Positions 1 to 18,363 of a stretch of DNA of 64,000 nt are shown in pieces. The notes under the pieces are model-generated. The model saw only the letters and a list, made by a program, of their open reading frames with translations. It did no database searches and had not been told where the DNA came from. Numbering within the stretch: the stretch's first letter is position 1; each line of letters begins with the position of its first letter. The position numbers and the translations under genes are program-made. This stretch comes from Tropicimonas marinistellae (GTDB lineage Bacteria > Pseudomonadota > Alphaproteobacteria > Rhodobacterales > Rhodobacteraceae): contig NZ_LNCI01000003.1 of assembly GCF_001509585.1 (NCBI RefSeq), forward strand, positions 310,001 to 374,000. The letters are read 5' to 3'.

Positions 1-270
1 CCTTCCGGTGGCGTCGCTCGATACAGGTGACACCCCGTCTATCCGGAACAGAGAGCCGGGCAAACCCCCCCGCGACACCCCGCCTCGCACCGGGCGTTCA
101 CAAGGTCGTTTCCTGCCCGCAAGATGCCGCAGGTTGGCGGATGGCCTTTCGCAATCGGCGGGAAAAGGGATACCGTGCGACGTGTCGCTGCGGCGCTGTG
201 GCTGCGCGTTGCCGACCGAGCCCCGAATTGCGGGGCGGACAAGAAATGGCCCCGACCGACAAGGACCACC

Positions 271-1518: not shown

Positions 1519-1555
1519 TCTCCGTGGACCGCGCCCGATTCCTCCTCGCCGAGGC

Positions 1556-1607
1556 CCTTCTTCTGTCGGGAAATATCCCGGGGGGCGCCGGGGGGCTGGC
1601 CCCCCGG
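1556..1607 (+). repeat. Dispersed GC-hairpin intergenic repeat, copy 1
   Basis: A short element beginning CTTCTTCTGTCGGGAAATAT, followed by a GC-rich hairpin (CCGGGGGG, loop CTGG, CCCCCCGG at 1588-1607). It lies between soxB and soxD. Two further copies in the opposite orientation lie at 23875-23900 and 33211-33270. The element is a familiar intergenic sequence in Rhodobacteraceae (recalled, not searched). Its hairpin could attenuate transcription or stabilise an mRNA end. Confidence 0.75.
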
Positions 1608-1789
1608 CTCCAGGCGGCGCAGCCTTCCGGCCGGGCGGTCAATGGCGCACCGGCCGAACCGCACCGCGCGGTGGCACCGCCGGGCAGCGCCCGACCTGCC
1701 TACGCGGGGCGGGCGTTTCTCGCCCACAGCCCGGCTCCGGCGCTGCGCTCCGTTCTCAAGCCCAACATCACTCCGGCAAGGACCGTCCC

Positions 1790-2113
1790 ATGCTGATCCT
1801 CACCTGCCCCTATTGCGGCATCCATTGCGACGAGACCGAGCTTGCCAATGGCGGCGAAGCGCATCTGAAACGCGAGGGCCCGGGGTCGAGCGACGATGCT
1901 TTCGAGGCCTATCTCTTCGATCGGGACAATCCGATGGGGGTGCATTTCGAGCGCTGGCGGCATGCCAACGGCTGCGGCAAGTGGTTCCTCGCGGCGCGGG
2001 ATACGGTGACGATGGAAGTCTTCGGGACCTACAAGGCGCAATCCATCGAACCGCCGGCCGAGATCGTCGAGAGGATCAGGGCCAAGCGGCCCGACTGGGA
2101 GGGGCGGGCATGA
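1790..2113 (+). CDS. soxD: Sarcosine oxidase delta subunit
   Basis: Small zinc-binding subunit of heterotetrameric sarcosine oxidase, 107 residues, the usual size. Cys6 and Cys9 (CPYC) with His58 and Cys62 (HANGC) match the Cys-Cys-His-Cys zinc site known in this subunit. The start ATG is preceded by AAGGA at 1778-1782. The open frame extends far upstream, but that part is non-coding and overlaps the repeat. Its stop overlaps the soxA start in an ATGA, which implies translational coupling. The 271-base gap from soxB is longer than expected for this operon. Confidence 0.95.
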   Translation: MLILTCPYCGIHCDETELANGGEAHLKREGPGSSDDAFEAYLFDRDNPMGVHFERWRHANGCGKWFLAARDTVTMEVFGTYKAQSIEPPAEIVERIRAKRPDWEGRA

Positions 2114-5109
2114 GCATACGTCTGGAGAGCGGTGGCCGGTTGATCGACCGCAGCAAACCCCTCGGCTTCACCTTCGACACCAACCCGATGCAGGGCTACG
2201 CGGGCGACACGCTGGCCTCGGCCCTGCTCGGTAGCGGGCAGGTTCTGGTCAACCGTTCCTACAAATACCATCGCCCGCGCGGCATTGTCGCCAGTGGGGC
2301 AGAAGAACCCAATGCGCTCGTCGGGTTGGGGCAGGGTGGCCGCTTCGAGCCGGATCAGCGCGCGACCACGACCGAACTGTTTGATGGCCTGATTGCGATG
2401 AGCCAGAACGCCTGGCCGTCGCTTGGCTTCGATGCGATGGCCGTCAACGGCTGGTTTTCCTCGATGATGCCGGCCGGGTTCTACTACAAGACCTTCCTGT
2501 GGCCTCGGAGCTTCTGGAAGCACGTTTACGAGCCGGTGATCCGGGACGCGGCGGCCTCCGGTCTGCCCCCGAAGGAGCCCGACGCCGACCTCTACGAGCA
2601 TTTCTATGCCTTCGTCGACGTTCTGATCGTCGGCGGCGGTATCGCCGGCTTGCAGGCGGCGTTGGTGGCGGGGCGCGCGGGCGCGCGGGTTCTTCTGATC
2701 GAGCAGACTGCCCATTGGGGCGGACGCGCCCCGGTGGACGGGGTGGAAATCGACGGCCAGCCTGCCGATGTCTGGATCGCCGATACCATCGCAGCGTTGC
2801 AGGCGATGGAAAACGTCACGCTCCGCGCGCGCTGCATGGGCGCGGGACTCTATGACCACGGATTCGCGCTCGGCTATGAGCGTCTTTCCGATCATACGCC
2901 GGGCGACGGTCGCCCGCGCCACCGGCTGTGGAAGATCCGGGCAGGGCGGATCGTCACCGCCACCGGCGCCATCGAACGGCCGCTGAGTTTTGCCGGCAAC
3001 GATGTGCCGGGGGTGATGCTGGCCTCTGCCGTGCGCGACTATGTGGTGAATTTCGGTGTCGCACCGGGCCGTCGCACCGTTGTGGTGACCAATAACGACG
3101 ATGCCTATCGGACCGCATTGGTATTGATCGACGCCGGGCTGGAGGTGCCTGCCATCGTCGACGTCCGGGAACGCAGCGATGGTCCGCTCGCCCGCGAATG
3201 CGTCCGGCGTGGGGTGCGGGCGGAAACCGGCGCCGCCGTGATGAAGGTCAAGGGCGGCAAACAGGTTGCGGGCGTGATGCTCTGCCGTGCCAATGGTACC
3301 GGCGGCGCGGGCGCTTTGCTGGAATGCGATTGCGTGGCCATGTCGGGCGGCTGGTCACCGGTGGTGCACCTCTGGTCCCATTGCGGCGGCAAGCTGCTGT
3401 GGTCGGACGAATACGCGCATTTCTACCCCGACCCGAGCCGCGCTCCCACCGGTGCAGATGGCGCTCCCTTCGTCTCGACGGCCGGCGCGGCTTCGGGTTG
3501 CATGGCGAGCGGAGAGGTCCTGGCAGATGCCGCTGAAAAAGGCGCGGCGGCGGTCGGTGCCGCGTATTCCGGCGATCTCCCGCAGACGAACGATATCGAA
3601 GAACTGCCGATGCAGCCCGTCTGGGTGATGCCCACGGGAGCCCTGCCGGAACTGCGGGCCAAGATGTTCCTCGATTTCCAGAACGACGTGAAGGTCTCTG
3701 ACGTGCAACTGGCCGCTCAGGAAGGCTACGAGAGCGTTGAGCTGACCAAGCGCTATACCACCCTCGGCATGGCGAACGATCAGGGGAAGCTGAGCAATAT
3801 CAATGGCCTTGCCGTTCTTTCGCAGTCGTTGGGTGAAGCGATTCCGCAGGTCGGCACGACGACATTCCGGCCGCCCTACCAGCCAATCTCCTTTGGCTCC
3901 ATCGCCGGCGAGGCACGCGGCGGAACGTTCCAGCCGCTCCGTCGGACACCGATGCACGACTGGCACGAAGCGGCAGGTGCATATCTGGAGCCGGTTGGGC
4001 ACTGGAAGCGACCCTATTGCTACCCCAAGCCGGGCGAGAGCCACGCCGAGGCGGTGGCGCGCGAGGTCAAGGCAACCCGCGCCTCGCTGGGTATGCTGGA
4101 CGCCTCGACACTGGGCAAGATCGTCGTGAAGGGGCCGGATGCCGGGCGCTTCCTCGATATGCTCTACACCAACAAGATGTCCACGCTGAAACCCGGACGT
4201 TGCCGCTACGGGCTCATGTGCAACGAGAACGGCTTCCTGATGGACGACGGGGTGGTGGCGCGGCTCGACGACGACACGTTCCTCTGCCACACGACCTCCG
4301 GTGGCGCGGACCATGTGCACGGCCACATGGAGGACTGGCTGCAATGCGAGTGGTGGGATTGGAAAGTCTGGACGGTCAATCTGACCGAGCAATACGGCCA
4401 GATCGCCATTGTCGGCCCCAACGCCCGCAAGCTGATGGAAAGTCTCGGGGGGATGGATGTCTCCAAGGAGGCCCTGCCGTTCATGGGCTGGGTCGAGGGG
4501 GAGTTGGCCGGATTCCCGGTGCGGGTCTACCGGATCTCCTTCTCCGGCGAGCTGAGCTACGAGATTGCCGTTCCCGCGGGGCAGGCACGGGCACTCTGGG
4601 ATGCGGTGCTGGCGGATGGCGCGGCGTTTGGCATCACCCCCTACGGAACCGAGGCGCTGCACGTGATGCGGGCCGAGAAGGGATTCATCATGATCGGCGA
4701 CGAAACCGACGGCACGGTAATCCCGCAGGATCTCGGCCTCGACTGGGCGATCTCGAAGAAGAAGGATGACTACCTCGGTAAGCGCGCGCAGGAACGCAGT
4801 TTCATGACGCGCGACGACCGCTGGAAACTGGTCGGGCTGGAGACGCTCGACGGGTCCGTGCTGCCTGACGGAATCTATGCGGTGGGCGAGGGCGAGAATG
4901 CCAATGGTCAGCGCAATACCATCGGACGGGTGACGTCCACCTACCACTCACCGACACTCGGCAAGGGGATCGCCATGGGGTTGGTGGCGCATGGCCCGGA
5001 GCGCATGGGCGAGGTGCTGAAGTTCGCGGCCACCGACGGCGCGATGATCGAAGCTAGGATCGTCGATCCGGTGTTCTATGATCCGGACGGGGAGAAGCAG
5101 AATGTCTGA
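2110..5109 (+). CDS. soxA: Sarcosine oxidase alpha subunit
   Basis: Large subunit of heterotetrameric sarcosine oxidase, 999 residues. The N-terminal ~110 residues resemble a 2Fe-2S-like fold found in these subunits. An NAD-binding dinucleotide fold follows, with GGGIAGL near residue 175. The last ~390 residues are a glycine-cleavage T-protein-like domain that handles tetrahydrofolate and the methylene group. The start ATG overlaps the soxD stop, and the soxG start lies inside the soxA 3-prime end. The long antisense frame over this gene (3355-4947) is a codon-bias shadow. Confidence 0.97.
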   Translation: MSIRLESGGRLIDRSKPLGFTFDTNPMQGYAGDTLASALLGSGQVLVNRSYKYHRPRGIVASGAEEPNALVGLGQGGRFEPDQRATTTELFDGLIAMSQNAWPSLGFDAMAVNGWFSSMMPAGFYYKTFLWPRSFWKHVYEPVIRDAAASGLPPKEPDADLYEHFYAFVDVLIVGGGIAGLQAALVAGRAGARVLLIEQTAHWGGRAPVDGVEIDGQPADVWIADTIAALQAMENVTLRARCMGAGLYDHGFALGYERLSDHTPGDGRPRHRLWKIRAGRIVTATGAIERPLSFAGNDVPGVMLASAVRDYVVNFGVAPGRRTVVVTNNDDAYRTALVLIDAGLEVPAIVDVRERSDGPLARECVRRGVRAETGAAVMKVKGGKQVAGVMLCRANGTGGAGALLECDCVAMSGGWSPVVHLWSHCGGKLLWSDEYAHFYPDPSRAPTGADGAPFVSTAGAASGCMASGEVLADAAEKGAAAVGAAYSGDLPQTNDIEELPMQPVWVMPTGALPELRAKMFLDFQNDVKVSDVQLAAQEGYESVELTKRYTTLGMANDQGKLSNINGLAVLSQSLGEAIPQVGTTTFRPPYQPISFGSIAGEARGGTFQPLRRTPMHDWHEAAGAYLEPVGHWKRPYCYPKPGESHAEAVAREVKATRASLGMLDASTLGKIVVKGPDAGRFLDMLYTNKMSTLKPGRCRYGLMCNENGFLMDDGVVARLDDDTFLCHTTSGGADHVHGHMEDWLQCEWWDWKVWTVNLTEQYGQIAIVGPNARKLMESLGGMDVSKEALPFMGWVEGELAGFPVRVYRISFSGELSYEIAVPAGQARALWDAVLADGAAFGITPYGTEALHVMRAEKGFIMIGDETDGTVIPQDLGLDWAISKKKDDYLGKRAQERSFMTRDDRWKLVGLETLDGSVLPDGIYAVGEGENANGQRNTIGRVTSTYHSPTLGKGIAMGLVAHGPERMGEVLKFAATDGAMIEARIVDPVFYDPDGEKQNV

Positions 5110-5665
5110 TGTCCAACCGGCCCTTGGCGGCGCGGAGTTCGACGGTGCAGGAGCGCGCGTGGTGGAAATGCCGCCCAAAGGCATGATTACCCTGCGCGGA
5201 TCCCCGGATGAGATCGGCGCAGCCGTTGCGGATGCGACAGGCTGCGCTGTGCCGGGGCAAAGAGAAATCACCTTCGAAGGCGAATTCGCATTGGGGTGGA
5301 TGTCGCCTGACGAGTTCCTGTTGATGTGCCCGCGCGACGAGGTCGGCACTTGCCTGAAGTCTCTCGGTGAGACGCTCGCCGGTTCCCACCATCTCGCCGT
5401 GGACGTGTCCGATGCGCGGGCCGTATTCTCCATCGCCGGGCCGGGCGCCCGGGAGGTACTCGCACGCTTGTGCCCGGTGGATCTTGCATCGACGGCTTTC
5501 GGGCCGGGTGAAATTCGCCGCAGCCGGATCGCGCAGGTTCCGGCGGCATTCTGGATCGATGCGAACGATGACATCAAGTTGATCTGCTTTCGCTCTGTCG
5601 CACGATATGCCTTCGATGTGCTCTGCGGCGCGGCAAAAGGCGAACCAGTGGGCGTCCTGCGATAA
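5102..5665 (+). CDS. soxG: Sarcosine oxidase gamma subunit
   Basis: Fourth subunit of heterotetrameric sarcosine oxidase, 187 residues, related to the T-protein/YgfZ fold. Features seen include EGEFALGWMSPDEFLLMCP and the following DVSDARAVFSIAGPGAREVL stretch, both typical of SoxG. It overlaps the end of soxA by 8 bases, completing soxBDAG. No clear intrinsic terminator was seen in the 158 bases after the stop. Confidence 0.93.
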   Translation: MSDVQPALGGAEFDGAGARVVEMPPKGMITLRGSPDEIGAAVADATGCAVPGQREITFEGEFALGWMSPDEFLLMCPRDEVGTCLKSLGETLAGSHHLAVDVSDARAVFSIAGPGAREVLARLCPVDLASTAFGPGEIRRSRIAQVPAAFWIDANDDIKLICFRSVARYAFDVLCGAAKGEPVGVLR

Positions 5666-5823
5666 ATTCCGGCGCCGAGTTTCACGCAGGACCCGCATCG
5701 GGACGTATCGGATTTGGCGGATGGACAACCCACCGGATATGGATACGATTGACCCGAACAAGCCTCGATTGGCCATGAAATGAACGCAATTGGGGAGATA
5801 ACTCCGGGCCAGGAGAATCTTGG

Positions 5824-6963
5824 ATGCGTGGCATGGCATACGACGGAGACAAAGCGCGCGGTAGCCAGCGCGGCAGCGGGAATGCCCGTTGTCTCTTCGA
5901 AGCCGACGGCGTGCAGTTGTTCCACAGGTCCGCACGCTCCGACAACGCCGTCGTGCTGTTCTGCGAAGGTCCGACATGCGCCCGGATCCGGACCAACTGG
6001 ATCAGCGCGCCGGGACGGGCGGCGGTCGATCTGTTCGAGGTTCGGCCGAGCCGTGCCGGGCATTACCCTCCGCAGGAGATGCGGGCACTCTGCCAGATCC
6101 TGACAGAGACCAGTTCGCGCCCGGCAATTGCTCTGGGTGCGGCAATGGGAGGGCAGGCAGCACTGCACTACGCGCGGCAGGCTGGTTGCGGTGCCTTACT
6201 GGCGTTTTCGCCCATAGGGGTCGCACCCACGGGCGATCCGGCGTCCGGTCCGGACCTGCAACAGGACGATCTGGCGCCGTTCACACTCATCGCATTCGAT
6301 CCGCATCGCGCCGATGACGCGGCTCAATTCGCCGCGCTTCGTCAGCTGGATGGCGTTCAGCCTGTTCGGTTGCCGTTTATGGGCCAGCGCACGGAGCGCA
6401 CGCTGATCGGCGAGAATATCGCGCGCAGGGTTTTCACTGCGGTGCTGCGCGGCGAGGCCGGTGAAGTCGCCCGGTTGCTTCGGCACAACCGGGGCCATGA
6501 CGACGGCTTCCTGTCACGGCTCTCGATTGCTTGCTCGCAGGGCGGACACCCTCGTTGGGGGGCCGAAATCGCCGCCAAGGGCGATCCGACGCGTCAGCAC
6601 CTCCCGGATCTGGCAATGGCCCGCGCCGAGGCACAGGCAGCGCTTGGCCAGCCGCTGAACGCGGTAGAGACGTTGGAGGGGCTTGTGGTCGCCGCACCAG
6701 AAAGCCCGCGCTACTGGACGCTTCTTGCAGACCGCTACGAAGCGATGGGGCAAGTCTGGGCGACGACCGAAGTCCTGGAGCTGGCGCTGGCGGTGACGGA
6801 AAATTTCGGTTTCTGCTGGAGATTGCTTCGCATCCTGGCGGCAACCGACGATCCAAAGGCCCGCATGCAAGCGCGCGCGCTGGCCGAGCTTGCAAAACAC
6901 CATTGGCCGGAGCGCCGCGCCCAAATCGCGCGGATCGTGAGGGCCATTCCGCCGGTCCAATGA
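5824..6963 (+). CDS. Alpha/beta-hydrolase-like protein with TPR-like C-terminus
   Basis: 379 residues. The first ~215 look like an alpha/beta-hydrolase core, and the last ~140 are helical and TPR-like (LPDLAMARAEAQAALGQPLN). The nucleophile-elbow region reads GAAMGGQAALHYA (105-117), with Ala107 where the catalytic Ser of G-x-S-x-G is expected, so serine-hydrolase activity is doubtful. No signal peptide is seen. AGGAG at 5811-5815 sets the start. It precedes a GSCFA protein, an FkbH-like protein and a methyltransferase on the same strand and may belong with them. The exact role is unknown. Confidence 0.7.
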   Translation: MRGMAYDGDKARGSQRGSGNARCLFEADGVQLFHRSARSDNAVVLFCEGPTCARIRTNWISAPGRAAVDLFEVRPSRAGHYPPQEMRALCQILTETSSRPAIALGAAMGGQAALHYARQAGCGALLAFSPIGVAPTGDPASGPDLQQDDLAPFTLIAFDPHRADDAAQFAALRQLDGVQPVRLPFMGQRTERTLIGENIARRVFTAVLRGEAGEVARLLRHNRGHDDGFLSRLSIACSQGGHPRWGAEIAAKGDPTRQHLPDLAMARAEAQAALGQPLNAVETLEGLVVAAPESPRYWTLLADRYEAMGQVWATTEVLELALAVTENFGFCWRLLRILAATDDPKARMQARALAELAKHHWPERRAQIARIVRAIPPVQ

Positions 6964-7063
6964 GCGGTGCGGCGGGATCGAGACAGGCGGCATTGCTCCA
7001 CCGGAGCATTGGATAAAGGTCAATGAGAATGGAGGTCGGAGAGGCCCCGAAAGGCAGAGGCAG

Positions 7064-8425
7064 ATGGCTGAGACAAACTTGGAAAGACTGACCGCGTTGG
7101 AGGCCTACAGACGCGCGTCCGGCAACAACCTGCGGCGCTACCCGTCGCCAGACAAGGATGGCGATCGGCTTTATCCCCTCGCGACGCCGCAATCGACGCC
7201 CTCATTCACCATGTCGCGCGACGACACGGTCTTCACCATCGGATCCTGCTTTGCACGCAACGTGGAATCGGCCCTGATAAGCGCCGGGATCGAGGTGACG
7301 AGCCGCGATTTCGACCTTGGCCCCATTGGTGAGAGCCTCGGATTCGCCGGCAACTTCTTCAACAAGTACTCGATCCATTCGGTGAACAACGAGCTTCGGT
7401 GGGCGCTCGACAGGGCGAGTTTCCCGGGCAAGGACGTCCTCTATCCGCTACAGGCCGATGACAGCAAATACAGCGACCTGCAACTGGGGGCCGCCAAGCT
7501 TGAGTTCTCCGCCGATGAGATCCTCGCTTTCCGTCATCGCTTTCTCGATGTCATGGCGCGCGCGGCCGAGGCCGATGTGGTGATCGTTACGCTGGGCTAT
7601 GTGGAGGTCTGGTACGATACGCAACTGGGCATCTACCTGAACGTCGCTCCGCCGCCGCAGCTTGCCCGGAAGCAGCCCGAGCGCTTCGAATTCCGCGTGC
7701 TGAGCTACGAGGATGTCCTCGGCGGGTTGCGCGAGCTCTACGAGATTCTCACGCGCTACAGAAGCAAGCCGCTGCGGATGCTGCTGACCGTCTCCCCGGT
7801 GCCGTTGCTATCCACCTTCCGCGACGTCGATGTGCTGGTTGCCAACAGCTACTCCAAATCGGTGCAACGCGCGGCCATCGATGCCTTTATCGCGGAGACG
7901 GACGGCGTGGATTACTTCCCCTCCTACGAGTTCGTTGTGCTCAGCGATCCGCGTGTCGCGTGGTCTCGCGGGGATTACCGCCACGTTTCCTCAGACCTCG
8001 TCGCGCGGATCATGCAATCGGTGCTTGCCAGATACGTTCCCGGCTCCGGGCAACAGGAGGCGCAGGGGGCCGCACCGATGACGGCGGAAGCCCTCGAGGC
8101 GTCGGTCCGCATGATGCTCAAGATGAAGGAACACGAGAGCGTGCTGGCGCTCATGGTCGATCACGAGGCGGTCGTTGCAAGCAGCGCGGTCCTGCAGCAG
8201 CTTCGCGGCGTGGCGCTCTCTTCTCTCGACCGGTTCGAAGAAGCCTTCGACGCAATGGGTGCCTCCTATGCGCTGGCACCGGGCAACGCGGTGCCGCTGG
8301 AGCGCCAGATCGCGTGGTGCCGCAAGCTCGGCCGCAAGGAGGTGGCGCGGGGTTTGCGCCAAGTGCATGTGGCGGCCTTCCCCGACCGGGCGGATTTCCG
8401 CGACGGCCTCACCTGGCTCGACTGA
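7064..8425 (+). CDS. GSCFA domain protein
   Basis: 453 residues. The diagnostic GSCFA pentapeptide is at 60-64 (TIGSCFARNVESAL), followed by conserved family stretches such as NFFNKYSIHSV and VTLGYVEVWYD and, later, TVSPVPL. The family has an SGNH/GDSL-like fold in which the Ser of GSCFA is a candidate nucleophile; its substrates are poorly known and are often presumed to be cell-surface glycans or lipids. After about residue 335 the protein is helical and repeat-like. A 28-base gap separates it from the FkbH-like gene, suggesting one transcript. Confidence 0.85.
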   Translation: MAETNLERLTALEAYRRASGNNLRRYPSPDKDGDRLYPLATPQSTPSFTMSRDDTVFTIGSCFARNVESALISAGIEVTSRDFDLGPIGESLGFAGNFFNKYSIHSVNNELRWALDRASFPGKDVLYPLQADDSKYSDLQLGAAKLEFSADEILAFRHRFLDVMARAAEADVVIVTLGYVEVWYDTQLGIYLNVAPPPQLARKQPERFEFRVLSYEDVLGGLRELYEILTRYRSKPLRMLLTVSPVPLLSTFRDVDVLVANSYSKSVQRAAIDAFIAETDGVDYFPSYEFVVLSDPRVAWSRGDYRHVSSDLVARIMQSVLARYVPGSGQQEAQGAAPMTAEALEASVRMMLKMKEHESVLALMVDHEAVVASSAVLQQLRGVALSSLDRFEEAFDAMGASYALAPGNAVPLERQIAWCRKLGRKEVARGLRQVHVAAFPDRADFRDGLTWLD

Positions 8426-8453
8426 ACCCGGAGCCCATGTCAGGATTGTGCCC

Positions 8454-10202
8454 ATGACAGCCTACGACCTGAGCGAATTCCGCAGCACCGTGAAGCTGGT
8501 CGTCTGGGATCTGGACGAAACCTTCTGGGGTGGCACGCTTTCTGAGGGTGGCATCACCGTGCGCCCTGAAAACGTCGCACTGGTGCGGCGCCTGGCCGAA
8601 CGCGGTATTGTCTCGTCAATCTGTTCCAAGAACGATTTCGAACAGGCGAAGAAGGCACTGGAAGAGATTGGGATATGGGACTATTTCGTGTTTCCCCATA
8701 TCGACTGGACGCCCAAGGGGCAGGCGATCCGCTCGATGATCGCCGATATGGGGCTGCGCGACGAGAACGTGCTGTTCCTGGACGACAATCCAATGAACCT
8801 CGAAGAAGCGGCGTTCTTCAATGAGCAGATCATGTGCGTGGACGGCCGGCGCGCTCTGAGCGGATTGCTGGACCTTCCGCAACTCGCGGGCAAGGACGAC
8901 CGGGAATTGTCGCGTCTGGCGCAGTACCGGGTAAACGAGGCGAAGCACCGGGAGCAGGTACAGGGCGATCTTTCCAACGAGGAATTCCTGCGGCAGTCGG
9001 ACATCCGGCTGAGCCATATCTACGATATTGATGGCAATTGGGAGCGGGTGCTGGAACTCATCAACCGCACCAACCAGCTCAATTTCACCAAGAAACGGGT
9101 GGAGACGCCGGAGGCGGAGGCGGAGCTGCGGGAGATGCTGGCGATGCCCGGTGCGCATGCGGCATTGATCCATGTGACGGACCGTTTCGGAGACTACGGA
9201 TTGGTGGGCTTCTACCTGATTGTGAAACGTGCCTCTGGCGCGCGGCTGGAGCATTTCGCCTTTTCCTGCCGGACGCTCAACATGGGCGTCGAGCAATACG
9301 TCTACGACTGCCTGGAGCGGCCGGTCCTCAAGATTGCAGAGCCGGTGGCCAGCGGGCTGGACGCCGCCGCGCCGGTGGATTGGGTACGCGAGGTTGTGCA
9401 AGGCGAGGACGATGCGACAGCGCCTGACCGGCGGCTTTGCCTGGTGGGCGGTTGCGACCTGCTACAGATGGCATTCTATTGCGGGGCCAACCGGGACGAA
9501 TTCGTCAACATTGTCCGCAACGGCATGGTGGTGCGCTACGACGACGTTGGCTTCATCCTGGCCGACCGTGAGGACCCGTCGATCACCGGCTATCGAAACC
9601 GGCTGGAAATGTGGAGCCGGGACGAGATGCGGGCCTTCGATGCGGCACTCGGGCAGGCGGACGTGGTTATCCTGTCGCTCTACCAATCGGCGGCGGGGCA
9701 GAACTTCTTCACCTTCGGCGGGGCGGAATTCGGTGGCCGGCACCTTATGCACGTGCCCGCGCAGGCAATGCGGACCATTCTTGCCGGTGAGAATGCCGCG
9801 TGGTTCGCGAAGAATTTCTACTACCGACGCTACACGCTGGAAGAGAAGCTGACCCTCATCCGCAAGGCCTATGATCGGGTGCTGTCGCTCGTGCGGCCCC
9901 GGACCCCCGTGATCCTGATCGGGGCGAGCGAGGTTGGGGCGCGTGCTGACCGGTCGCTGGAAATCCGGCAGGGGTTCAACGCGCTTGGTCGAGAATACGC
10001 GTCGGAGCGGGCGCAGGTGGTCCTGGCCGACCCGGCGGAAATCATGGCGCCCGAAGATGTTGTCGATGCAGATCACTTCACGAGAATCGGGTATTTCAAG
10101 CTTGCGCAGTTCATCAACGACGCGGCGGCGCAGGGGCAGGGCACACCGGCCGATCAGACAGAGGACGTGCGGAATGCGCAAGATTTTCAACAGGCTGTAT
10201 GA
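8454..10202 (+). CDS. HAD-IIIC family (FkbH-like) protein
   Basis: 582 residues. The HAD motif I DLDET is at 19-23 (VVWDLDETFWGGTL), with CSKND and LDDNP as further HAD motifs, the type seen in FkbH proteins. Known FkbH enzymes move a glyceryl unit from 1,3-bisphosphoglycerate to an acyl carrier protein. The second half has the RTNQLNFTK and FGDYGLVGFY stretches and an SGNH-like domain (LVGGCDLLQM) ending in ADHFTRIGY. No carrier-protein gene is visible nearby, so the acceptor is unknown. The open frame continues upstream, but homology begins at MTAYDLSEF. Confidence 0.85.
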   Translation: MTAYDLSEFRSTVKLVVWDLDETFWGGTLSEGGITVRPENVALVRRLAERGIVSSICSKNDFEQAKKALEEIGIWDYFVFPHIDWTPKGQAIRSMIADMGLRDENVLFLDDNPMNLEEAAFFNEQIMCVDGRRALSGLLDLPQLAGKDDRELSRLAQYRVNEAKHREQVQGDLSNEEFLRQSDIRLSHIYDIDGNWERVLELINRTNQLNFTKKRVETPEAEAELREMLAMPGAHAALIHVTDRFGDYGLVGFYLIVKRASGARLEHFAFSCRTLNMGVEQYVYDCLERPVLKIAEPVASGLDAAAPVDWVREVVQGEDDATAPDRRLCLVGGCDLLQMAFYCGANRDEFVNIVRNGMVVRYDDVGFILADREDPSITGYRNRLEMWSRDEMRAFDAALGQADVVILSLYQSAAGQNFFTFGGAEFGGRHLMHVPAQAMRTILAGENAAWFAKNFYYRRYTLEEKLTLIRKAYDRVLSLVRPRTPVILIGASEVGARADRSLEIRQGFNALGREYASERAQVVLADPAEIMAPEDVVDADHFTRIGYFKLAQFINDAAAQGQGTPADQTEDVRNAQDFQQAV

Positions 10203-10989
10203 CGAAGATCCCTACGAGGGCGCGCCGCTCGACGATGTCGAGGTCGATATGCAAGGCTGGGGCTCCACCCATTTCTTCTTCCGCGAGATCATCGGGTATC
10301 TGAAACCTTCCTTCATCGTCGAAGTCGGAAGCTGGAAGGGCCGGTCGGCGCTGCACATGGCCGACCTCGCCAAAGCCGCTGAGACGCCCAATCTGGAAAT
10401 ATGCTGCATCGACACGTGGCTCGGCTCTCCGGGTGTCTGGGCGCGCAAGGAGCAGGTGGCCGATGTGCTGAAGCTCCGCAATGGCTGGCCCATGCTTTAC
10501 TTCACCTTCATGAAGAACGTCGTCGAAAGCGGTCATCAGGACGTGATCACGCCAATGCCGATGCCGTCCGACATGGGGGCGCAGGTGCTCAAACGGCTTC
10601 GGGCACGACCGGACATGATTTATGTGGATGCCGCGCACGACTACGACAATTGCAAGCGCGATCTGGCGCTCTACTTCGACCTGCTGAGCGATGACGGGAT
10701 CCTGCTTGGAGACGACTACGAGACCTGGCCGGGCGTGACCCAGGCCGCCGATGAATTCGCCCGCGAGAACGGTCTCATCCTCGTCGGAACGCGGAGTAAG
10801 TTCGTGTTGTCCAAGAACATCGATCACGTCCATGCCATGCAGGGCGTTCTGGCAGAGATCGAGGCGCGCCGGGCTCGGGTCGCGGAAGCCAAGGCGCGGG
10901 CGGAACAGTTGCGCGCGGGTGACGAGGCGCCGGGCGACGCAGTGGGGCAAAGCACCAGCGAAACCGACGACACGAACCCGGTCCTCTGA
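10174..10989 (+). CDS. Class I SAM-dependent methyltransferase
   Basis: 271 residues with the SAM-binding motif VEVGSWKGRSALHMA at 49-63, then an acidic loop (CCIDTWLGSPGVW) and MIYVDAAHDYDNCKRDL, as in the Methyltransf_24 / cephalosporin-hydroxylase-like group. The target is unknown. It overlaps the preceding gene by 29 bases, so co-translation is likely, and this suggests it modifies the same product. The C-terminal ~45 residues are acidic and look disordered. Confidence 0.83.
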   Translation: MRKIFNRLYDEDPYEGAPLDDVEVDMQGWGSTHFFFREIIGYLKPSFIVEVGSWKGRSALHMADLAKAAETPNLEICCIDTWLGSPGVWARKEQVADVLKLRNGWPMLYFTFMKNVVESGHQDVITPMPMPSDMGAQVLKRLRARPDMIYVDAAHDYDNCKRDLALYFDLLSDDGILLGDDYETWPGVTQAADEFARENGLILVGTRSKFVLSKNIDHVHAMQGVLAEIEARRARVAEAKARAEQLRAGDEAPGDAVGQSTSETDDTNPVL

Positions 10990-11168
10990 GTCAGTCGCTG
11001 CGGTGCGGCTCGGGCGGGTGTGAGAACGGGGTGCGCGCGGCGTGAAATGCCGAAACTCCAATCATCTGCAACGCGATCGTGAGACAAGTCCGGACCTGCG
11101 CCTTGACGCGGCCACGCGGCACGGTCACATACGGGGCACAGGAAACGCTGCTCACGAAGGATAGTTGC

Positions 11169-11768
11169 ATGGCTTTTGAACTTCCCGACCTGCCCTATGC
11201 CCATGACGCGCTCGCCGCGAATGGCATGAGCCAGGAAACCCTCGAGTACCACCACGACCTGCACCACAAGGCCTATGTCGACAACGGCAACAAGCTGATC
11301 GCGGGCACCGAGTGGGAGGGCAAGTCCCTCGAGGAGATCATCGTCGGCACCTACGACAAGGGCGCCGTGGCTCAGAACGGCATCTTCAACAACATCTCCC
11401 AGTTGTGGAACCACAACCAGTTCTGGGAAATGATGGGTCCGGGCGCGAGCGCCATGCCGGGCGAGCTGGAAAAGGCCATCGTCGAGAGCTTCGGTTCGGT
11501 CGACGAGTTCAAATCCCAGTTTTCCGCCGCAGGTGCCGGTCAATTCGGCTCCGGTTGGGCGTGGCTGGTGAAGGATACCGACGGCTCGCTGAAGGTCACC
11601 AAGACCGAGAACGGCGTCAACCCGCTCTGCTTCGGCCAGACGGCCCTGCTCGGCTGCGACGTGTGGGAGCATTCCTACTACATCGACTTCCGCAACAAGC
11701 GTCCGGCCTACCTCGCCAACTTCCTCGACAAGCTGGTCAACTGGGAAAACGTCGCCAGCCGGATGTAA
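11169..11768 (+). CDS. sodB: Superoxide dismutase, Fe type
   Basis: 199 residues, full length for the Fe/Mn superoxide dismutase family, cytoplasmic. Metal ligands are visible: His28 (LEYHHDLHH), His82 (LWNHNQFW), Asp164 and His168 (DVWEHSYYIDF). Gln79 in ISQLWNH is the position and residue typical of Fe-dependent members, which favours sodB over sodA. AAGGA lies 7 bases before the ATG. A strong intrinsic terminator follows at 11796-11825. The gene appears monocistronic. Confidence 0.95.
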   Translation: MAFELPDLPYAHDALAANGMSQETLEYHHDLHHKAYVDNGNKLIAGTEWEGKSLEEIIVGTYDKGAVAQNGIFNNISQLWNHNQFWEMMGPGASAMPGELEKAIVESFGSVDEFKSQFSAAGAGQFGSGWAWLVKDTDGSLKVTKTENGVNPLCFGQTALLGCDVWEHSYYIDFRNKRPAYLANFLDKLVNWENVASRM

Positions 11769-11795
11769 TCGGCGCGACCTTCTTGACGAATTCGC

Positions 11796-11825
11796 ATGGC
11801 GGCCGGGTACCTCGGCCGCCATTTT
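11796..11825 (+). terminator. Rho-independent terminator of sodB
   Basis: A perfect 10-base-pair stem (ATGGCGGCCG / CGGCCGCCAT) with a 7-base loop, followed by TTT, 27 bases after the sodB stop. Confidence 0.85.
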
Positions 11826-11914
11826 CGTTGCTCGGCCGAGTACGACGTCAGCCGCTTGACCTTTGGCCGCAAGAGGCGTCTTGTCCGCCCGTTGGAAGAG
11901 ACGGAGCGGCGCCA

Positions 11915-12823
11915 ATGACCGACGTACGAAAAGGAATTCTGGCGATGGTCGGCGCCTGCGTGATCTGGGGCTCCTCGCCGATCTTCTTCAAGGCGCTGTC
12001 GCATGTCTCGCCGGCGGAGATCCTGGCACATCGGACGCTATGGGCCTGTCTCTTCTTCGCAGGTGTTTTGTGGGTTCAGGGGCGTTTCTCGCAACTGCCT
12101 CAACTTCTGGCGGCGGCACCCGGTCGGGTGTTTCTGGCCGCGGTGATGATTTCCGTCAACTGGTTCGTCTACATCTGGGCCGTTCACGTGGGGCGCGCAA
12201 TCGAGGCAAGTCTCGGCTACTACATCTTCCCGCTGGTGGCCGTCTTGCTCGGAGCGGTCGTTTTCGGCGAACGTTTGGGCAGGGTACAATGGCTCTCGGT
12301 GGGCTTGGCGACGCTAGGTGTTGCGGTGCTGACATTGGGATTGGGTGTTGTGCCCATCGTGTCGCTCGTACTGGCCACGACCTTCGGCCTCTACGGGATG
12401 TTCAAGAAACGTCTGGATGCAGGGCCCGTCGTTTCGGTCACGGGCGAGGTCACACTGCTCGCGCCCATAGCGCTGGCATGGATGGGGTGGCTCTATCTCC
12501 CAACGGGCGCGTATCCGCACGCGCCGGCGACGTCTGCAATGCTCGTGATATCAGGGGTTGGGTTCACCGCGATCCCATTGATGCTGTTCTCCTACGCTGC
12601 GCGTCGGGTACGGCTGGCGACGGTCGGATTGGTGCAATACCTCAATCCGACGCTGCAATTCCTCTGCGCGACGGTGATATTCGGTGAGGTCTTCACCATC
12701 TGGCACGCCGCAGCCTTCGGATTGATCTGGGCGGCGCTTGCACTCTACTCCGGGCAGGCGCTGGCCGCTGATAGGGCGGTCCGCAACAAAGCCATGAGCG
12801 CGGGAACGTCGGGCACGGTCTGA
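11915..12823 (+). CDS. rarD: RarD-type EamA family permease
   Basis: 302 residues, integral membrane protein with about ten hydrophobic segments in two EamA/DMT repeats. The start VGACVIWGSSPIFFKAL and ILAHRTLWACLFF match the RarD subfamily. The substrate is not established for this group. Its 3-prime end overlaps the convergent LOG-family gene by 79 bases, so both strands code there. Confidence 0.88.
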   Translation: MTDVRKGILAMVGACVIWGSSPIFFKALSHVSPAEILAHRTLWACLFFAGVLWVQGRFSQLPQLLAAAPGRVFLAAVMISVNWFVYIWAVHVGRAIEASLGYYIFPLVAVLLGAVVFGERLGRVQWLSVGLATLGVAVLTLGLGVVPIVSLVLATTFGLYGMFKKRLDAGPVVSVTGEVTLLAPIALAWMGWLYLPTGAYPHAPATSAMLVISGVGFTAIPLMLFSYAARRVRLATVGLVQYLNPTLQFLCATVIFGEVFTIWHAAAFGLIWAALALYSGQALAADRAVRNKAMSAGTSGTV

Positions 12824-13320
12824 ACGAAGTCAAGCAGACTGCTTTCAGCGAAACCCTGCGTCACAACATGTTTCATGAGCGCGTTCAACGGTGCCCAGTA
12901 TCCGTTCACATCCAGCAGGATCAGCGGTTTCCCATGCAAACCGAGCTGCGCCCAGGTCAATGTCTCAAAAAACTCGTCTAGGGAACCGGCACCGCCGGGC
13001 AAGACGACGATGGCATCGGCATTCATGAACATGACCTTCTTGCGTTCATGCATCGTCTCGGTGACAATAAAGGTTGACAGGTCCCGTTTGCCTACTTCGC
13101 GGTCGAAGAGATGGACAGGGATGACGCCGAACGTCTCACCGCCGCCGGCCTGAGCAGTGCGGGCGACGCGGCCCATGAGCCCGATGTCTCCCGCGCCGTA
13201 GACGAGCCGCCAGCCTTCGGTCGCGATAGCATGCCCGAGAGCCTCTGCCGCGTCGGCGTACTCGGGGTCGCTCCCATCTCGGGAGCCGCAGTAGACGCAG
13301 ATGGAAATGGGTTGTGACAT
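12745..13320 (-). CDS. LOG family protein (TIGR00730 type)
   Basis: 191 residues. The Rossmann-like LOG family includes cytokinin riboside 5-monophosphate phosphoribohydrolases and nucleotide N-glycosidases. Family motifs are ICVYCGSRDG at the N-terminus, VYGAGDIGLMG, MHERKKVM, and LPGGAGSLDEFFE, the PGGxGTxxE signature with Ser in place of Thr. The start is the ATG at 13320, which gives the usual family N-terminus; an upstream ATG at 13344 would add eight residues. It converges on and overlaps rarD. Confidence 0.88.
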   Translation of the reverse strand: MSQPISICVYCGSRDGSDPEYADAAEALGHAIATEGWRLVYGAGDIGLMGRVARTAQAGGGETFGVIPVHLFDREVGKRDLSTFIVTETMHERKKVMFMNADAIVVLPGGAGSLDEFFETLTWAQLGLHGKPLILLDVNGYWAPLNALMKHVVTQGFAESSLLDFVQTVPDVPALMALLRTALSAASACPE

Positions 13321-13433
13321 CGTTGCAAGACCTTGAGTATACATCGTTTTGACCCCTGATAGCGGGCTTGCTATCTTCGCTCAACCCGCGCAGGGGGTCA
13401 TGCGGCGGCGTTTGGAGAAAGGTAAAGGGTAGG

Positions 13434-14933
13434 ATGTCGGAAAAAGCAATGCTCGGAGGGGCGGGCGGCGTGGCAGCGGTTGCCGTGGTCGTTGCAGCCG
13501 GCGTTGCTTTCGTTCTTCACAGTCTCGCGTTCGATGAGTCGCCGTCGCCGGCCGTCGTCGAAACGTCCGATCGCAGCGCGACTCCTGCACCGAGCGACAC
13601 GGACGACGGCGAGAATACGCCGGGTTCGGGGAACTTGGACACCGCAATGGTGCAACGCCCTGCCCAGACGGATGAAACAGCGCTGTCACAGGGGCAATCC
13701 GCGCCGTCCGCGACGACCGCCGATGTGGCGCAGGAAGCGATCCCGGCCATGCAAGCCGAGGTCGATGCGGATGCATCGGACGGGGCGACTGAGACCGACG
13801 GAACCGGATTGCGGGTACCCGAGTTTGCCCACGTTCGGGTGAGCGGCGACGGGCGTGCCGTCGTTTCCGGGCTCGCACCGGCGGGCTTCGACGTGTCGGT
13901 GGAAGTGGATGGAGCGGACCTCCACACCGTTTCGGCCGATGGTACCGGACAATTCGCGGCGCTCTTCGACCTTCCCCGCTCGAATGCGGCGCAGGTGCTC
14001 TATCTGGTTGCCCGCGATGGCGGGGGGCAGGAGATCCGCTCCGACGAGAGCGTGATCCTGGCGCCTCGACTGGCTGGGCAATCGGGCACCGACGTGGCGC
14101 TGGCCGGCGACACGACCCGCGAGGTTGCTCGTGCCGAGGTGGCGGGCACGGAGGTGAGTGTGGACAACGCGCAGGAACTGGAGGCGACCGGCGACGCGGG
14201 CGTTGTTTCGGACGCGACCTCTGCCTCCGCCGCCGCGGGGGTGGCAACGACACCGCTGGCCACGGAACGCTCGGATCGACAGGAATGGGAGGCACCCGGC
14301 GGGATGCCACCGGCAGAGGTCGTGCCTGCCCACGCGGGCGATGCTCTGGCTCCGTCGGTTCTGTTGGCCGGGCGCGACGGGGTGGAACTCCTGCAGCCGG
14401 CAAACGCGATCCCGCAGCGTCTGCATGACCGGGTGGTGGTGGACGTGATCAGCTATTCGGATGACGGCAGCGTGGCGCTGGAAGGCCGCGCGGCAACCAA
14501 TGTCGACCGGGCCGACCGGGTGCAGGTCTATCTGAACAACCGCCCCGTCCAGTCGGCGCGGATCGCGCCGGACGGCCGCTGGCACCTGCGGCTGCCGGCG
14601 GTGAAACCGGGGGTCTACACCCTGCGGGTCGATCAGGTGGCGCCCGACGGGCGGGTCGTGGCCCGCTTCGAGACGCCCTTCAAGCGCGAGGATCCGGCCG
14701 AGCTGGCCCGGCTGATCCCGGAGGCGGGGGCGGCGGGGGCCGTCTCGGCCTCGGTCATCACCGTGCAGCCGGGCTACACGCTCTGGGGGATCGCGGCGGA
14801 CCGCTATGGTGACGGGCTGGAATATGTCCAGATTTTCGAGGCCAACCAGGGGCAGATCCGCGACCCGGACCTGATCTATCCGGGCCAGGTCTTCGAGCTG
14901 CCGGAAGGGGCTGCCGACGCGGGGGCGGAGTGA
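13434..14933 (+). CDS. LysM domain envelope protein
   Basis: 499 residues. One N-terminal membrane segment (about residues 5-28) is followed by a long acidic Ala/Asp/Thr-rich region likely to be disordered. Ig-like segments follow (NAIPQRLHDRVVVDVISYS; VQVYLNNRPVQSARIAPDG). The last ~50 residues are a LysM peptidoglycan-binding domain (ITVQPGYTLWGIAADRYGDG). The domain order suggests a membrane-anchored periplasmic protein bound to murein. Base composition becomes more GC-rich and more regular from about 14400, matching the conserved C-terminal half. A 6-base-pair hairpin (14935-14949) follows the stop. Confidence 0.82.
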   Translation: MSEKAMLGGAGGVAAVAVVVAAGVAFVLHSLAFDESPSPAVVETSDRSATPAPSDTDDGENTPGSGNLDTAMVQRPAQTDETALSQGQSAPSATTADVAQEAIPAMQAEVDADASDGATETDGTGLRVPEFAHVRVSGDGRAVVSGLAPAGFDVSVEVDGADLHTVSADGTGQFAALFDLPRSNAAQVLYLVARDGGGQEIRSDESVILAPRLAGQSGTDVALAGDTTREVARAEVAGTEVSVDNAQELEATGDAGVVSDATSASAAAGVATTPLATERSDRQEWEAPGGMPPAEVVPAHAGDALAPSVLLAGRDGVELLQPANAIPQRLHDRVVVDVISYSDDGSVALEGRAATNVDRADRVQVYLNNRPVQSARIAPDGRWHLRLPAVKPGVYTLRVDQVAPDGRVVARFETPFKREDPAELARLIPEAGAAGAVSASVITVQPGYTLWGIAADRYGDGLEYVQIFEANQGQIRDPDLIYPGQVFELPEGAADAGAE

Positions 14934-15630
14934 TGTCTCACCGTGAGACAGGAGTCCGGGCGTTGATTTCATTGGGAAAAATCTGACGGATTTACCGTTT
15001 GTTAGGGATTGTGCGTGGGTGACGCAGGCCAATCGGGGCCGGGAAGCCGCCGCGCGGCGATGCCGCCTGCGTTGGTCAATGCCGAGGGGCATTCCAGTGC
15101 CGGGCAGCGCGGGCCGTGGACGCACGCGCAGTCAATTGCTCCAATCACCGAGGTCCGGGCATCGTGGAACGCTCGCTATGGGGACCGTGACAGAGATACG
15201 GGTTAGAGGCGGTGACCAAAGCGACCGCGTTCCAACACATCGTGCACTTGAGAGAAGGTCGGTTAAGAGCCCATATCGACCGGTGCTGCGGTCCGGACAG
15301 ACGGTGAGAACGCCGACGTCGTGGTCCTTCGCTGCAAGAGCAGTATTCCCCCTCGCGCTAAAGTGGCGATTGACAAGGCGAGCAAGGACAGGACGTCCGA
15401 CGCGGATTTCTCACCGTTCTGCCCGGTAAGACGGCTCCGCCATTGTTCAAGCAAATCAGAACCGATTTGACGCGACCACAGCCGCGTATTCGATCCTCAA
15501 ACGACCGCCACGTACCGTGGCAACAACTGTGTTGCAAAGGAAACAAGCATGAACGGAAAACGCGACAGGAAATTGATAACCGACCCCGGTCGAAAAAGTC
15601 CCGATAGGAACTGTAGAGGGAGGTTTTGCA
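14934..15630. other. Gene-free stretch upstream of the autotransporter-like gene
   Basis: About 700 bases with no convincing coding frame; the short frames here lack ribosome sites and family character. It begins with the hairpin GTCTCA-ccg-TGAGAC at 14935-14949. The last part should hold the promoter of the next gene, with a good ribosome site GGGAGG at 15618-15623. Base composition is more even than in neighbouring genes. Confidence 0.6.
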
Positions 15631-17394: not shown

Positions 17395-17791
17395 CGCAGG
17401 CGTTCGTTCGCGAGGTACTCTATGAAAGGCCGGAATTGAGCGTTCTCAACGATCGATTATATGCTGCGCCTGCAATGGTCGCTGATGTAATAAGAGTCAG
17501 CTCTGCGCAGGAAGCGGTCGCAAAGAGTCTCGCAGATGAACGAATGCTTGGTTCTGCATACCGGCCGAGCGTCTGGTGGCAAGAAATCTTCCTTCCCAAA
17601 TCCGCCGTTTCCAGCATCACCGGGTCGGGTCGCTTTGAGTTGGCGGCTCGGGTGAGACAGTTCCCCCGGTTAGATCAATACAGGCAGCGCGCCAGAATAA
17701 CCGCGCCGTTCGCGTCGTGAGGCGTTCCATCGCGATGGTAAGGGTCCGCACCGGCCATACAAGCCGACGGGCAATGTGCTAGATTGCCGGA
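17395..17791. other. Gene-free stretch after the autotransporter-like gene
   Basis: About 400 bases of lower GC than the surroundings. A 109-codon frame from a TTG at 17391 overlaps the previous stop codon, lacks a ribosome site and resembles nothing I know; I do not call it a gene. Degenerate former coding sequence is possible. Confidence 0.5.
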
Positions 17792-18280: not shown

Positions 18281-18363
18281 GCGAACCGCCTGGACCCTGC
18301 GCTTCCGACCTCCGGCGCGCGCCGCGTCGCGCTTGCCGTGGACCTCCGCCCCGTCCGTGCGCC

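What the first reader, a model, noticed from the sequence alone, without database searches (positions are those of the whole stretch)
5824..10989. Uncharacterised module: hydrolase-like/TPR, GSCFA, FkbH-like HAD and methyltransferase
Four consecutive same-strand genes, the last three close or overlapping, combine an SGNH-like GSCFA protein, a HAD-IIIC glyceryl-transfer-type protein and a methyltransferase, but no acyl carrier protein or polyketide synthase. The set suggests decoration of a glycan or other surface polymer with a glycerate-derived and methylated group, chemistry not described for such a minimal set as far as I know.
Basis: inference. Interest (0 to 1): 0.7.

Follow-up and report, generated by a model that had tools for sequence, protein, structure and literature searches.

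The report
Probable surface-sugar decoration gene cassette
Four neighbouring genes in a marine bacterium probably add a small acid-derived group to a sugar polymer on the cell surface; the key enzyme belongs to a branch of a known family that seems to do without its usual carrier protein, which remains to be tested.

Summary
The four genes are real and rightly described: an alpha/beta-hydrolase-fold + TPR protein, a GSCFA (SGNH-clan) protein, an FkbH-type protein (above the NCBIfam cut-off) and a Methyltransf_24 protein, dN/dS 0.12-0.20 against T. sediminicola. They are not an obligate unit. In 9 genomes of the window's GTDB genus the same site (soxG ... SOD) holds hyd alone (2), hyd+GSCFA (2), all four (3), or was empty or not found (2); FkbH and MT come as an add-on pair. 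The window's hydrolase has lost its catalytic Ser and conserved His. The main new point: this FkbH protein belongs to a clade (branch support 100/99) that ends in an SGNH-fold domain with an invariant Cys (54 of 54 rows) at the likely nucleophile place. A carrier-protein gene turned up in 1 of 80 clade loci (flanks up to 10 kb, many shorter), against a carrier in 8 of 8 conventional FkbH loci of the same bacterial family (6 adjacent, 2 fused). One further clade member sits beside a polyketide synthase with carrier domains. Best reading: acyl-phosphate activation (probably glyceryl), relay through the built-in Cys-SGNH domain to a surface glycan, then methylation. Substrate, relay and acceptor are inferred.

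The parts
5078..5665 (+). soxG-like gene (end of the sarcosine oxidase operon): left border of the site
   Evidence: Match in 8 of 9 genomes of the genus; left border of all 7 occupied sites
5824..6963 (+). alpha/beta-hydrolase-fold + C-terminal TPR protein, probable pseudoenzyme (nucleophile codon 6142-6144 is Ala; conserved-His codon 6385-6387 is Gln)
   Evidence: AlphaFold2 + Foldseek; alignments; dN/dS 0.20
7064..8425 (+). GSCFA-family (SGNH clan) protein; Ser61 codon 7244-7246
   Evidence: PF08885 E 1.9e-44; G60 and S61 invariant in 13 rows
8454..10202 (+). FkbH-type protein: HAD (about residues 13-130), GNAT-like part (about 150-290), C-terminal SGNH-fold domain (about 325-561)
   Evidence: TIGR01686 above cut-off; model pLDDT 90; Foldseek HAD and GDSL-esterase hits; profile match to PAF acetylhydrolase E 1.2e-4
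9267..9269 (+). Cys272 of the SCR motif shared by FkbH proteins
   Evidence: 54 of 54 clade rows; SCR in 15 of 15 other FkbH-type proteins looked at
9453..9455 (+). Cys334 in GGCDL, likely place of the SGNH nucleophile
   Evidence: 54 of 54 rows; 79 of 81 in the wider alignment, the other two being incomplete ORFs
10074..10076 (+). His541, aligned with the His of the C-terminal block of PAF acetylhydrolase
   Evidence: 90% or more of 54 rows; 70 of 81; alignment
10174..10989 (+). Methyltransf_24 SAM methyltransferase, overlaps the FkbH stop by 29 bp
   Evidence: PF13578 E 1.4e-16; weak CmcI/TylF matches under their cut-offs
11169..11768 (+). superoxide dismutase gene (Fe/Mn type by the Pfam match of its L003 orthologue): right border of the site
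   Evidence: Right border in 7 of 9 genus genomes, window included, and found after the cassette in Defluviimonas aestuarii L009

Best explanation
The cassette decorates a surface glycan. Step 1 (supported by motifs): the HAD-GNAT part of the FkbH protein takes an acyl phosphate, most likely 1,3-bisphosphoglycerate, removes phosphate and holds the glyceryl group as a thioester, presumably on Cys272. Step 2 (inferred): instead of passing it to an acyl carrier protein, it hands it to Cys334 of its own C-terminal SGNH-fold domain (Cys/His pair), which transfers it to a hydroxyl or amine of a sugar. Step 3 (inferred): the neighbouring methyltransferase, which comes and goes with FkbH at this site, O-methylates the glyceryl group or the sugar. 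GSCFA and the hydrolase-fold/TPR protein are an older layer at the site (inferred from the nested distribution): GSCFA is a second acyl transferase or trimming esterase for the same polymer, and the dead hydrolase acts as a scaffold or binding protein. The glycan backbone is made elsewhere in the genome.
For: FkbH motifs intact, Cys272 and Cys334 invariant in 54 of 54. C-terminal domain SGNH-like by fold and by sequence. Carrier genes: 1 of 80 clade loci (L035, 6.4 kb away) and none near the window's genes; none annotated beside three clade genes on plasmids. Conventional FkbH: 8 of 8 loci of the same bacterial family have a carrier (6 adjacent, 2 fused), and 5 of 6 annotated plasmid loci. The clade is split from 13 conventional FkbH proteins, 12 of them with a carrier adjacent or fused, by a 100/99 branch; conventional ones lack the C-terminal domain. 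FkbH and MT are both present in 3 and both absent in 4 occupied sites. Methyltransferases, sulfotransferases and GSCFA recur beside clade genes.
Against: No biochemistry of any member. The genome has ACPs elsewhere that could serve. One clade member (L133) lies beside a PKS with two carrier domains. No glycosyltransferase lies in the window's own cassette. Neighbour counts are small (3-5 of 116 per family, relatives of the window's genus included), and other glycosyltransferase families and ABC transporters are as common among the distant control genes. GSCFA stays open where FkbH has decayed in a Loktanella strain, and one genus genome (G295) has hyd+GSCFA at the site but its FkbH-clade gene on another contig, so the parts are loosely coupled. 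That Cys334 stands where the SGNH Ser stands rests on its place after the first strand of the model and on the motif; the PAF-AH alignment covers only the C-terminal block, and Foldseek's output does not give aligned ranges. Comparison of the domain with GSCFA was not significant. Many clade loci have short flanks, and my carrier profile missed one of the eight controls (L144, found by Pfam).
Confidence: 0.4

Rival explanations
1. Same glycan decoration, but the FkbH protein loads a carrier protein made elsewhere (AcpP or another ACP), and the Cys-SGNH domain is the acyl transferase from that carrier to the sugar.
For: Stand-alone ACPs exist in the genome, one beside a ketosynthase-like gene on the same contig, one FAS-like. 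In the papers seen, FkbH proteins are taken to load an ACP (PMC7489565, PMC3679948, passages).
Against: Conventional FkbH genes come with a carrier (8 of 8); the clade rarely does (1 of 80).
Confidence: 0.25
2. The FkbH clade uses another acyl phosphate or phosphorylated acid, so the group added is not glycerate.
For: The clade is far from the conventional proteins in the tree (branches above 1 change per column); substrate cannot be read from sequence.
Against: HAD and SCR motifs are shared with conventional FkbH proteins.
Confidence: 0.15
3. The genes feed a small-molecule (polyketide or peptide) pathway rather than a glycan.
For: GSCFA genes occur in detoxin/rimosamide clusters (PMC9503745, PMC12828459, passages); one clade gene lies beside a PKS; a long frame with three carrier domains lies on another contig of the window's genome.
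Against: No ketosynthase or acyltransferase domain like that PKS in any of the 80 loci or window 1-20000, by one query set, and one ACP in 80 loci. NRPS genes were not searched for specifically.
Confidence: 0.1
4. The four genes are not a functional unit: the place between sox and sod genes collects unrelated genes.
For: Contents of the site vary within the genus and in Defluviimonas; GSCFA and hyd families are common on their own.
Against: hyd and GSCFA within 2 kb recur in 3 genomes outside the window's genus (52 genomes have both among the listed matches) and on the L099 record; GSCFA-FkbH neighbours recur in Loktanella and in an Acetobacteraceae MAG; hyd relatives lie beside or within 2 kb of FkbH in Paracoccus.
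Confidence: 0.1

Closest known systems
FkbH-like glyceryl-ACP synthases of methoxymalonyl-ACP and tetronate pathways (for example Mad7/Mad14, BafAIV)
   Same: HAD-GNAT core; SCR motif present in the plasmid examples L148-L150 and L153
   Different: The examples looked at are 341-356 aa without a C-terminal Cys-SGNH domain and sit beside an ACP and two dehydrogenases; they fall on the other side of the 100/99 branch
Conventional FkbH with an N-terminal FkbH_N (PF21211) domain, as in L138-L143
   Same: HAD-GNAT core; a GDSL/SGNH-like domain on the same chain (Pfam on L143)
   Different: Domain order reversed; no Ser or Cys among the invariant columns of that N-terminal domain in 7 rows; ACP gene within 75 bp
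[quoted passage not shown] FkbH-domain gene cj1302 in the same locus)
   Same: Glycerate plus methyl on a surface sugar, and an FkbH-domain gene in the locus (PMC3068675, PMC7099621, passages)
   Different: Large nonulosonic-acid locus; homology of the parts was not tested here, and the passages do not tie cj1302 to the modification
SGNH-clan glycan acyltransferases (AlgX, PatB, DltD and others)
   Same: Fold and expected role in acyl transfer (PMC9487903, passages)
   Different: Ser nucleophile (recalled); here Cys and a fused donor-activating module. GSCFA itself is listed there with no known activity
WcbI, a capsule protein with a Cys14/His201 pair that holds CoA
   Same: Cys and His beside a thioester in capsule synthesis (PMC4104973, passages)
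   Different: Not among the 50 listed Foldseek hits of the model; no direct comparison was made

Membership tests
FkbH (TIGR01686) | Score above the curated cut-off | tested here: met
   155.6 against 146.65 bits
FkbH (TIGR01686) | HAD catalytic residues and SCR cysteine | tested here: met
   D19, D21, S58, K88, D110, D111, C272 in every row that covers them; that these are the catalytic residues is recalled
FkbH (TIGR01686) | Carrier protein adjacent or fused, as in conventional members | tested here: not met
   None found near the genes; 1 of 80 clade loci
FkbH (TIGR01686) | Glyceryl transfer from 1,3-bisphosphoglycerate | not testable with these tools
   Needs biochemistry
Methoxymalonyl-ACP pathway | FkbH + ACP + two dehydrogenases + O-methyltransferase | tested here: not met
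   In the cassette only an FkbH-type protein and a methyltransferase; compare
GSCFA (PF08885) | Above gathering score with the GSC motif | tested here: met
   152.6 against 25 bits; G60 S61 invariant
GSCFA (PF08885) | SGNH DxxH in the C-terminal block | tested here: inconclusive
   Present in the window (DYRH), but the His is not kept in L103-L106 or L029
SGNH fold, FkbH C-terminal domain | Fold and C-terminal block like solved SGNH enzymes | tested here: met
SGNH fold, FkbH C-terminal domain | Ser nucleophile after the first strand | tested here: not met
   Cys in 54 of 54; position by model and motif, not by alignment to a solved structure
Active alpha/beta serine hydrolase (gene 1) | GxSxG and catalytic His | tested here: not met
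   GAAMGG and Gln in the window
Capsule (ABC-transporter) locus | Exporter and glycosyltransferases in the locus | not tested
   The cassette holds none and its near neighbours are sox, SOD, EamA, LOG and LysM genes; the rest of the window and genome was not scanned for capsule genes

The most novel reading that the evidence does not exclude
A broad FkbH clade (found here in Alphaproteobacteria, Bacteroidota, Planctomycetota and others) is a carrier-free acyl transferase: the HAD-GNAT part makes an acyl thioester from an acyl phosphate, and a fused SGNH domain with a Cys nucleophile delivers it straight to a glycan, so that a second on-chain thiol replaces the acyl carrier protein. In this window it was added, with a methyltransferase, to an older hydrolase-GSCFA site.
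Probability: 0.3. Interest if true: 0.75.

Novelty: new variant of a known kind. Interest (0 to 1): 0.55.

Why it matters
If the relay is right, a glycolytic intermediate would be tied to surface-glycan chemistry by one self-contained protein, and a domain arrangement that the records seen here call 'hypothetical protein' or 'DUF1796 family putative cysteine peptidase' would gain a function. GSCFA, one of five of the 16 SGNH families listed without a known function (PMC9487903, passages), would gain testable partners. The graded series at one site in one genus (hyd; hyd+GSCFA; all four) allows clean comparisons between close species.

Tried and rejected
Obligate four-gene unit: rejected, the set is nested and variable. 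Active hydrolase in gene 1: rejected by motif; the Ser loss is shared by G298 and G296, and G296 has no FkbH at the site, so it is not tied to FkbH. WcbI-like C-terminal domain: considered because of the Cys/His pair; not among the listed Foldseek hits. FkbH C-terminal domain as a GSCFA: hhalign not significant. Methoxymalonyl pathway: partners missing. Promoter and terminator scan: counts as in shuffles, uninformative. Literature: 10 search calls were answered. 'GSCFA' (31, 7 papers), 'FkbH'+'polysaccharide' (32, 3 papers), 'HAD-IIIC'+'capsule' (41, none), 'HAD-IIIC' and variants (105, 3 papers) and FkbH/SGNH/GDSL/HAD-IIIC (104, 12 of 224 listed) listed no title on this protein type; only openly licensed PMC papers are held, so this is no proof of absence. 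PMC9487903, PMC9503745, PMC12828459, PMC7099621, PMC3958885, PMC3068675, PMC7489565, PMC3679948 and PMC4104973 were seen as search passages, not whole; other papers as listings only. Logan et al. 2009, cited in PMC3068675, was not seen.

Limits: the gene caller was my own codon-score script and mis-called genes in L002; in the neighbour set A3 I replaced one of its two L002 neighbours by the known MT gene by hand. A3/A4 used dereplicated loci (60 of 80), one gene a side, 116 of 117 neighbours (one of 1000 aa or more dropped), against 116 random genes over 5 kb away in the same loci; only the 25 commonest families of each tally are shown. A1 has 54 rows (53 of 80 loci plus the window; fragments, fusions and near-copies left out); A5 has 53 of those 54 (L042 left out). 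The 80 loci include incomplete FkbH ORFs (for example L030, L053, L057, L074) and short flanks (for example L067, 3.8 kb in all). Searches list 150 places each, so the counts are lower bounds. The carrier profile found 7 of the 8 controls, L145 only weakly (E 0.0016); L144 was found by Pfam. PLSDB's gene tables are incomplete, so a missing ACP there is weak evidence. (PP-binding in 30 genomes) was run but not mapped onto the loci. The tree left out L144; its program warned of long branches.
Full report
OBSERVATION. The window lies in a genome whose nearest named relatives are Tropicimonas sediminicola and an uncultured Tropicimonas. Four + strand genes occupy 5824-10989: a hydrolase-like/TPR protein (379 aa), a GSCFA protein (453 aa), an FkbH-type protein (582 aa) and a Methyltransf_24 protein (271 aa). 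Structure prediction for the first gave an alpha/beta-hydrolase part and a TPR tail. Against T. sediminicola dN/dS is 0.20, 0.12, 0.17 and 0.15. dS is lower for GSCFA, FkbH and MT (0.80-0.97) than for hyd (1.51) and soxG (1.76), which fits later arrival or exchange of the last three, though codon bias could do the same; SOD has 0.44.

ARCHITECTURE OF THE SITE. In 9 genomes of the window's GTDB genus, 8 have a soxG match. Between soxG and SOD-EamA-LOG-LysM lie: hyd only (G296, G300); hyd+GSCFA (G297; G295, which also has a GT2 gene on the other strand and an FkbH-clade gene, 49% identical, on another contig); hyd+GSCFA+FkbH+MT (window, G298, and G007, which also has the GT2). In G301 none of these genes follows soxG within the 12-kb stretch fetched, and G299 has no soxG match. 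By matching contig positions, G298 and G007 are the named loci L002 and L003, so the four-gene set is known from three genomes. Two Defluviimonas loci carry FkbH next to the same sox operon with other cargo: in L009 a Methyltransf_24+FkbM methyltransferase fusion follows FkbH, then two more genes, then SOD, EamA, LOG and LysM; in L018 a weak GT2 match (under Pfam's cut-off) lies two genes after FkbH. A Marivivens MAG fragment (L074) also has sox then FkbH. FkbH and MT are together present in three and together absent in four occupied sites of the genus. So the four genes are layers, not one obligate machine.

GENE 1. Ser of GxSxG is Ala (window) or Gly (G298, G296), and a conserved His is Gln (window) or Leu (G296); G298 keeps that His, G297, G295 and G007 keep both, G300 keeps Ser but not His. 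Remote relatives lie beside or within 2 kb of FkbH in Paracoccus (a cluster in 7 loci; homology) and occur as fusions to a GT2 glycosyltransferase in L014/L015 and L099. A profile of the family matches in 239 of 295 genomes of the bacterial family. Of 52 genomes with both hyd and GSCFA among the listed matches, 5 (2 of the window's genus) have them within 2 kb. On L099 the GT2-hydrolase fusion abuts a GSCFA gene (56% identical to the window's) and dTDP-rhamnose and Kdo genes (gene names there by my reading of the sequences, not by a family search).

GENE 2. GSCFA is in 126 of 295 genomes, so presence alone says little. Next to this FkbH type it occurs in 4 of 80 loci (L002, L003, L012 Loktanella, L029 Acetobacteraceae MAG), and an iterated profile found no more. 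In another Loktanella strain the FkbH gene has decayed while GSCFA stays open. The review PMC9487903 lists no known activity for GSCFA (passages).

GENE 3. The HAD-GNAT core has the FkbH residues, including the SCR cysteine (Cys272), also present in all 15 other FkbH-type proteins inspected. The C-terminal 240 residues match SGNH enzymes by Foldseek (7e16, 8ik1, aligned ranges not shown) and by profile (PAF acetylhydrolase E 1.2e-4 over the C-terminal block with its His). Cys334 follows the first strand of that domain in the model, where SGNH enzymes have Ser (placement recalled from the fold; no alignment to a solved structure covers this block). It is invariant in 54 of 54 rows and present in 79 of 81 rows of a wider alignment, the other two being incomplete ORFs. 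His541 is present in 70 of 81. The 13 conventional FkbH proteins compared show no such C-terminal domain, and the N-terminal domain of seven of the family's own shows no Ser or Cys among its invariant columns.

CARRIER PROTEIN CONTROL. One profile was run on ORFs of 80 clade loci, five further clade loci, window 1-20000 and eight conventional loci of the same bacterial family. Conventional FkbH: an ACP gene within 75 bp in 6 of 8; L145 has a weak fused match (E 0.0016), and in L144, which the profile missed, Pfam finds a fused carrier domain. So 8 of 8. Clade: one ACP (L035, 6.4 kb away) among 80 loci, whose flanks are up to 10 kb but often shorter. No KS or AT domain like it is in the 80 loci. 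Annotated plasmids show an ACP beside FkbH in 5 of 6 conventional loci; the exception, Maritalea, lies in a pseB / N-acetylneuraminate-synthase cluster. Three clade genes on annotated plasmids have none listed nearby. In a tree of the HAD-GNAT part, 13 conventional proteins (12 with a carrier) form one side of a 100/99 branch. The other side holds the 54 clade members plus a Komagataeibacter fusion (annotated DUF1796) and a Rhizobium protein; both match the C-terminal domain profile, the Rhizobium one only over its end and on a long, unsurely placed branch.

NEIGHBOURHOOD. Pfam tallies over 116 nearest neighbours: Methyltransf_24 5, TylF 5, GSCFA 4, GT2 PF13704 4, Sulfotransfer_1 4, CmcI 3, FkbM 3. 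None of these is among the 25 families shown for 116 distant genes of the same loci, but other glycosyltransferase families (2-3 members each) and ABC transporters (4) are, so glycan genes in general are not shown to be concentrated at FkbH. The tallies overlap and include the window's congeners. Several Sulfitobacter loci place FkbH beside a CmcI-type methyltransferase or a sulfotransferase, with an ABC ATPase in the locus. All four rfb genes lie in 3 of 80 loci (L032, L053, L065).

INTERPRETATION. Shown: the genes, the nested site, the clade, the SGNH-like domain with its invariant Cys, the rarity of carriers. [quoted passage not shown] glycerate with two methyl groups decorates a flagellin sugar (PMC3068675). 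Inferred: glyceryl as the group, transfer via Cys334, a glycan as acceptor, methylation of the product, the scaffold role of gene 1. It overstated the unity of the set and missed the C-terminal domain, which is the most interesting feature.

Noticed in passing
L099 (NZ_CP061939.1, whole record): A 16-kb record labelled Bacillus velezensis plasmid holds a GSCFA gene 56% identical to the window's and rhamnose/Kdo polysaccharide genes; perhaps a mislabelled or contaminating alphaproteobacterial plasmid.
   Followed up: partly
L098 8276-9972: In Loktanella salsilacus 1A07893 the FkbH gene is a decayed remnant between flanks about 97.5% identical to a strain with an open copy.
   Followed up: partly
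L133 885-8612: A PKS with NMO, KS, AT, two carrier domains and KR lies directly downstream of an FkbH-clade gene in an unnamed family member (G035).
   Followed up: partly
L004, L006, L008 around 7600-11700: FkbH-clade gene beside a DUF2793 gene and a plasmid RepA (PF10134) gene (Pfam in L004; same sequence cluster in L006 and L008): probably plasmid-borne.
   Followed up: partly
L101 6630-9716: Komagataeibacter plasmid protein (1028 aa) annotated DUF1796 cysteine peptidase also holds the HAD-GNAT core and the C-terminal domain with GACDL, next to glycosyltransferases.
   Followed up: partly
L152 3627-6086: Maritalea FkbH-type protein (819 aa) sits in a pseB / N-acetylneuraminate-synthase cluster, recalling the Campylobacter flagellin locus.
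   Followed up: no
window 15631-17394: Putative surface protein with a long DPT tripeptide repeat (about 16000-16400) and a C-terminal part that looks, by eye, like an outer-membrane barrel.
   Followed up: no
G000:C37 about 316800-324600: An open frame given as 3456 aa with three carrier domains in the window's genome, perhaps an NRPS or PKS.
   Followed up: no
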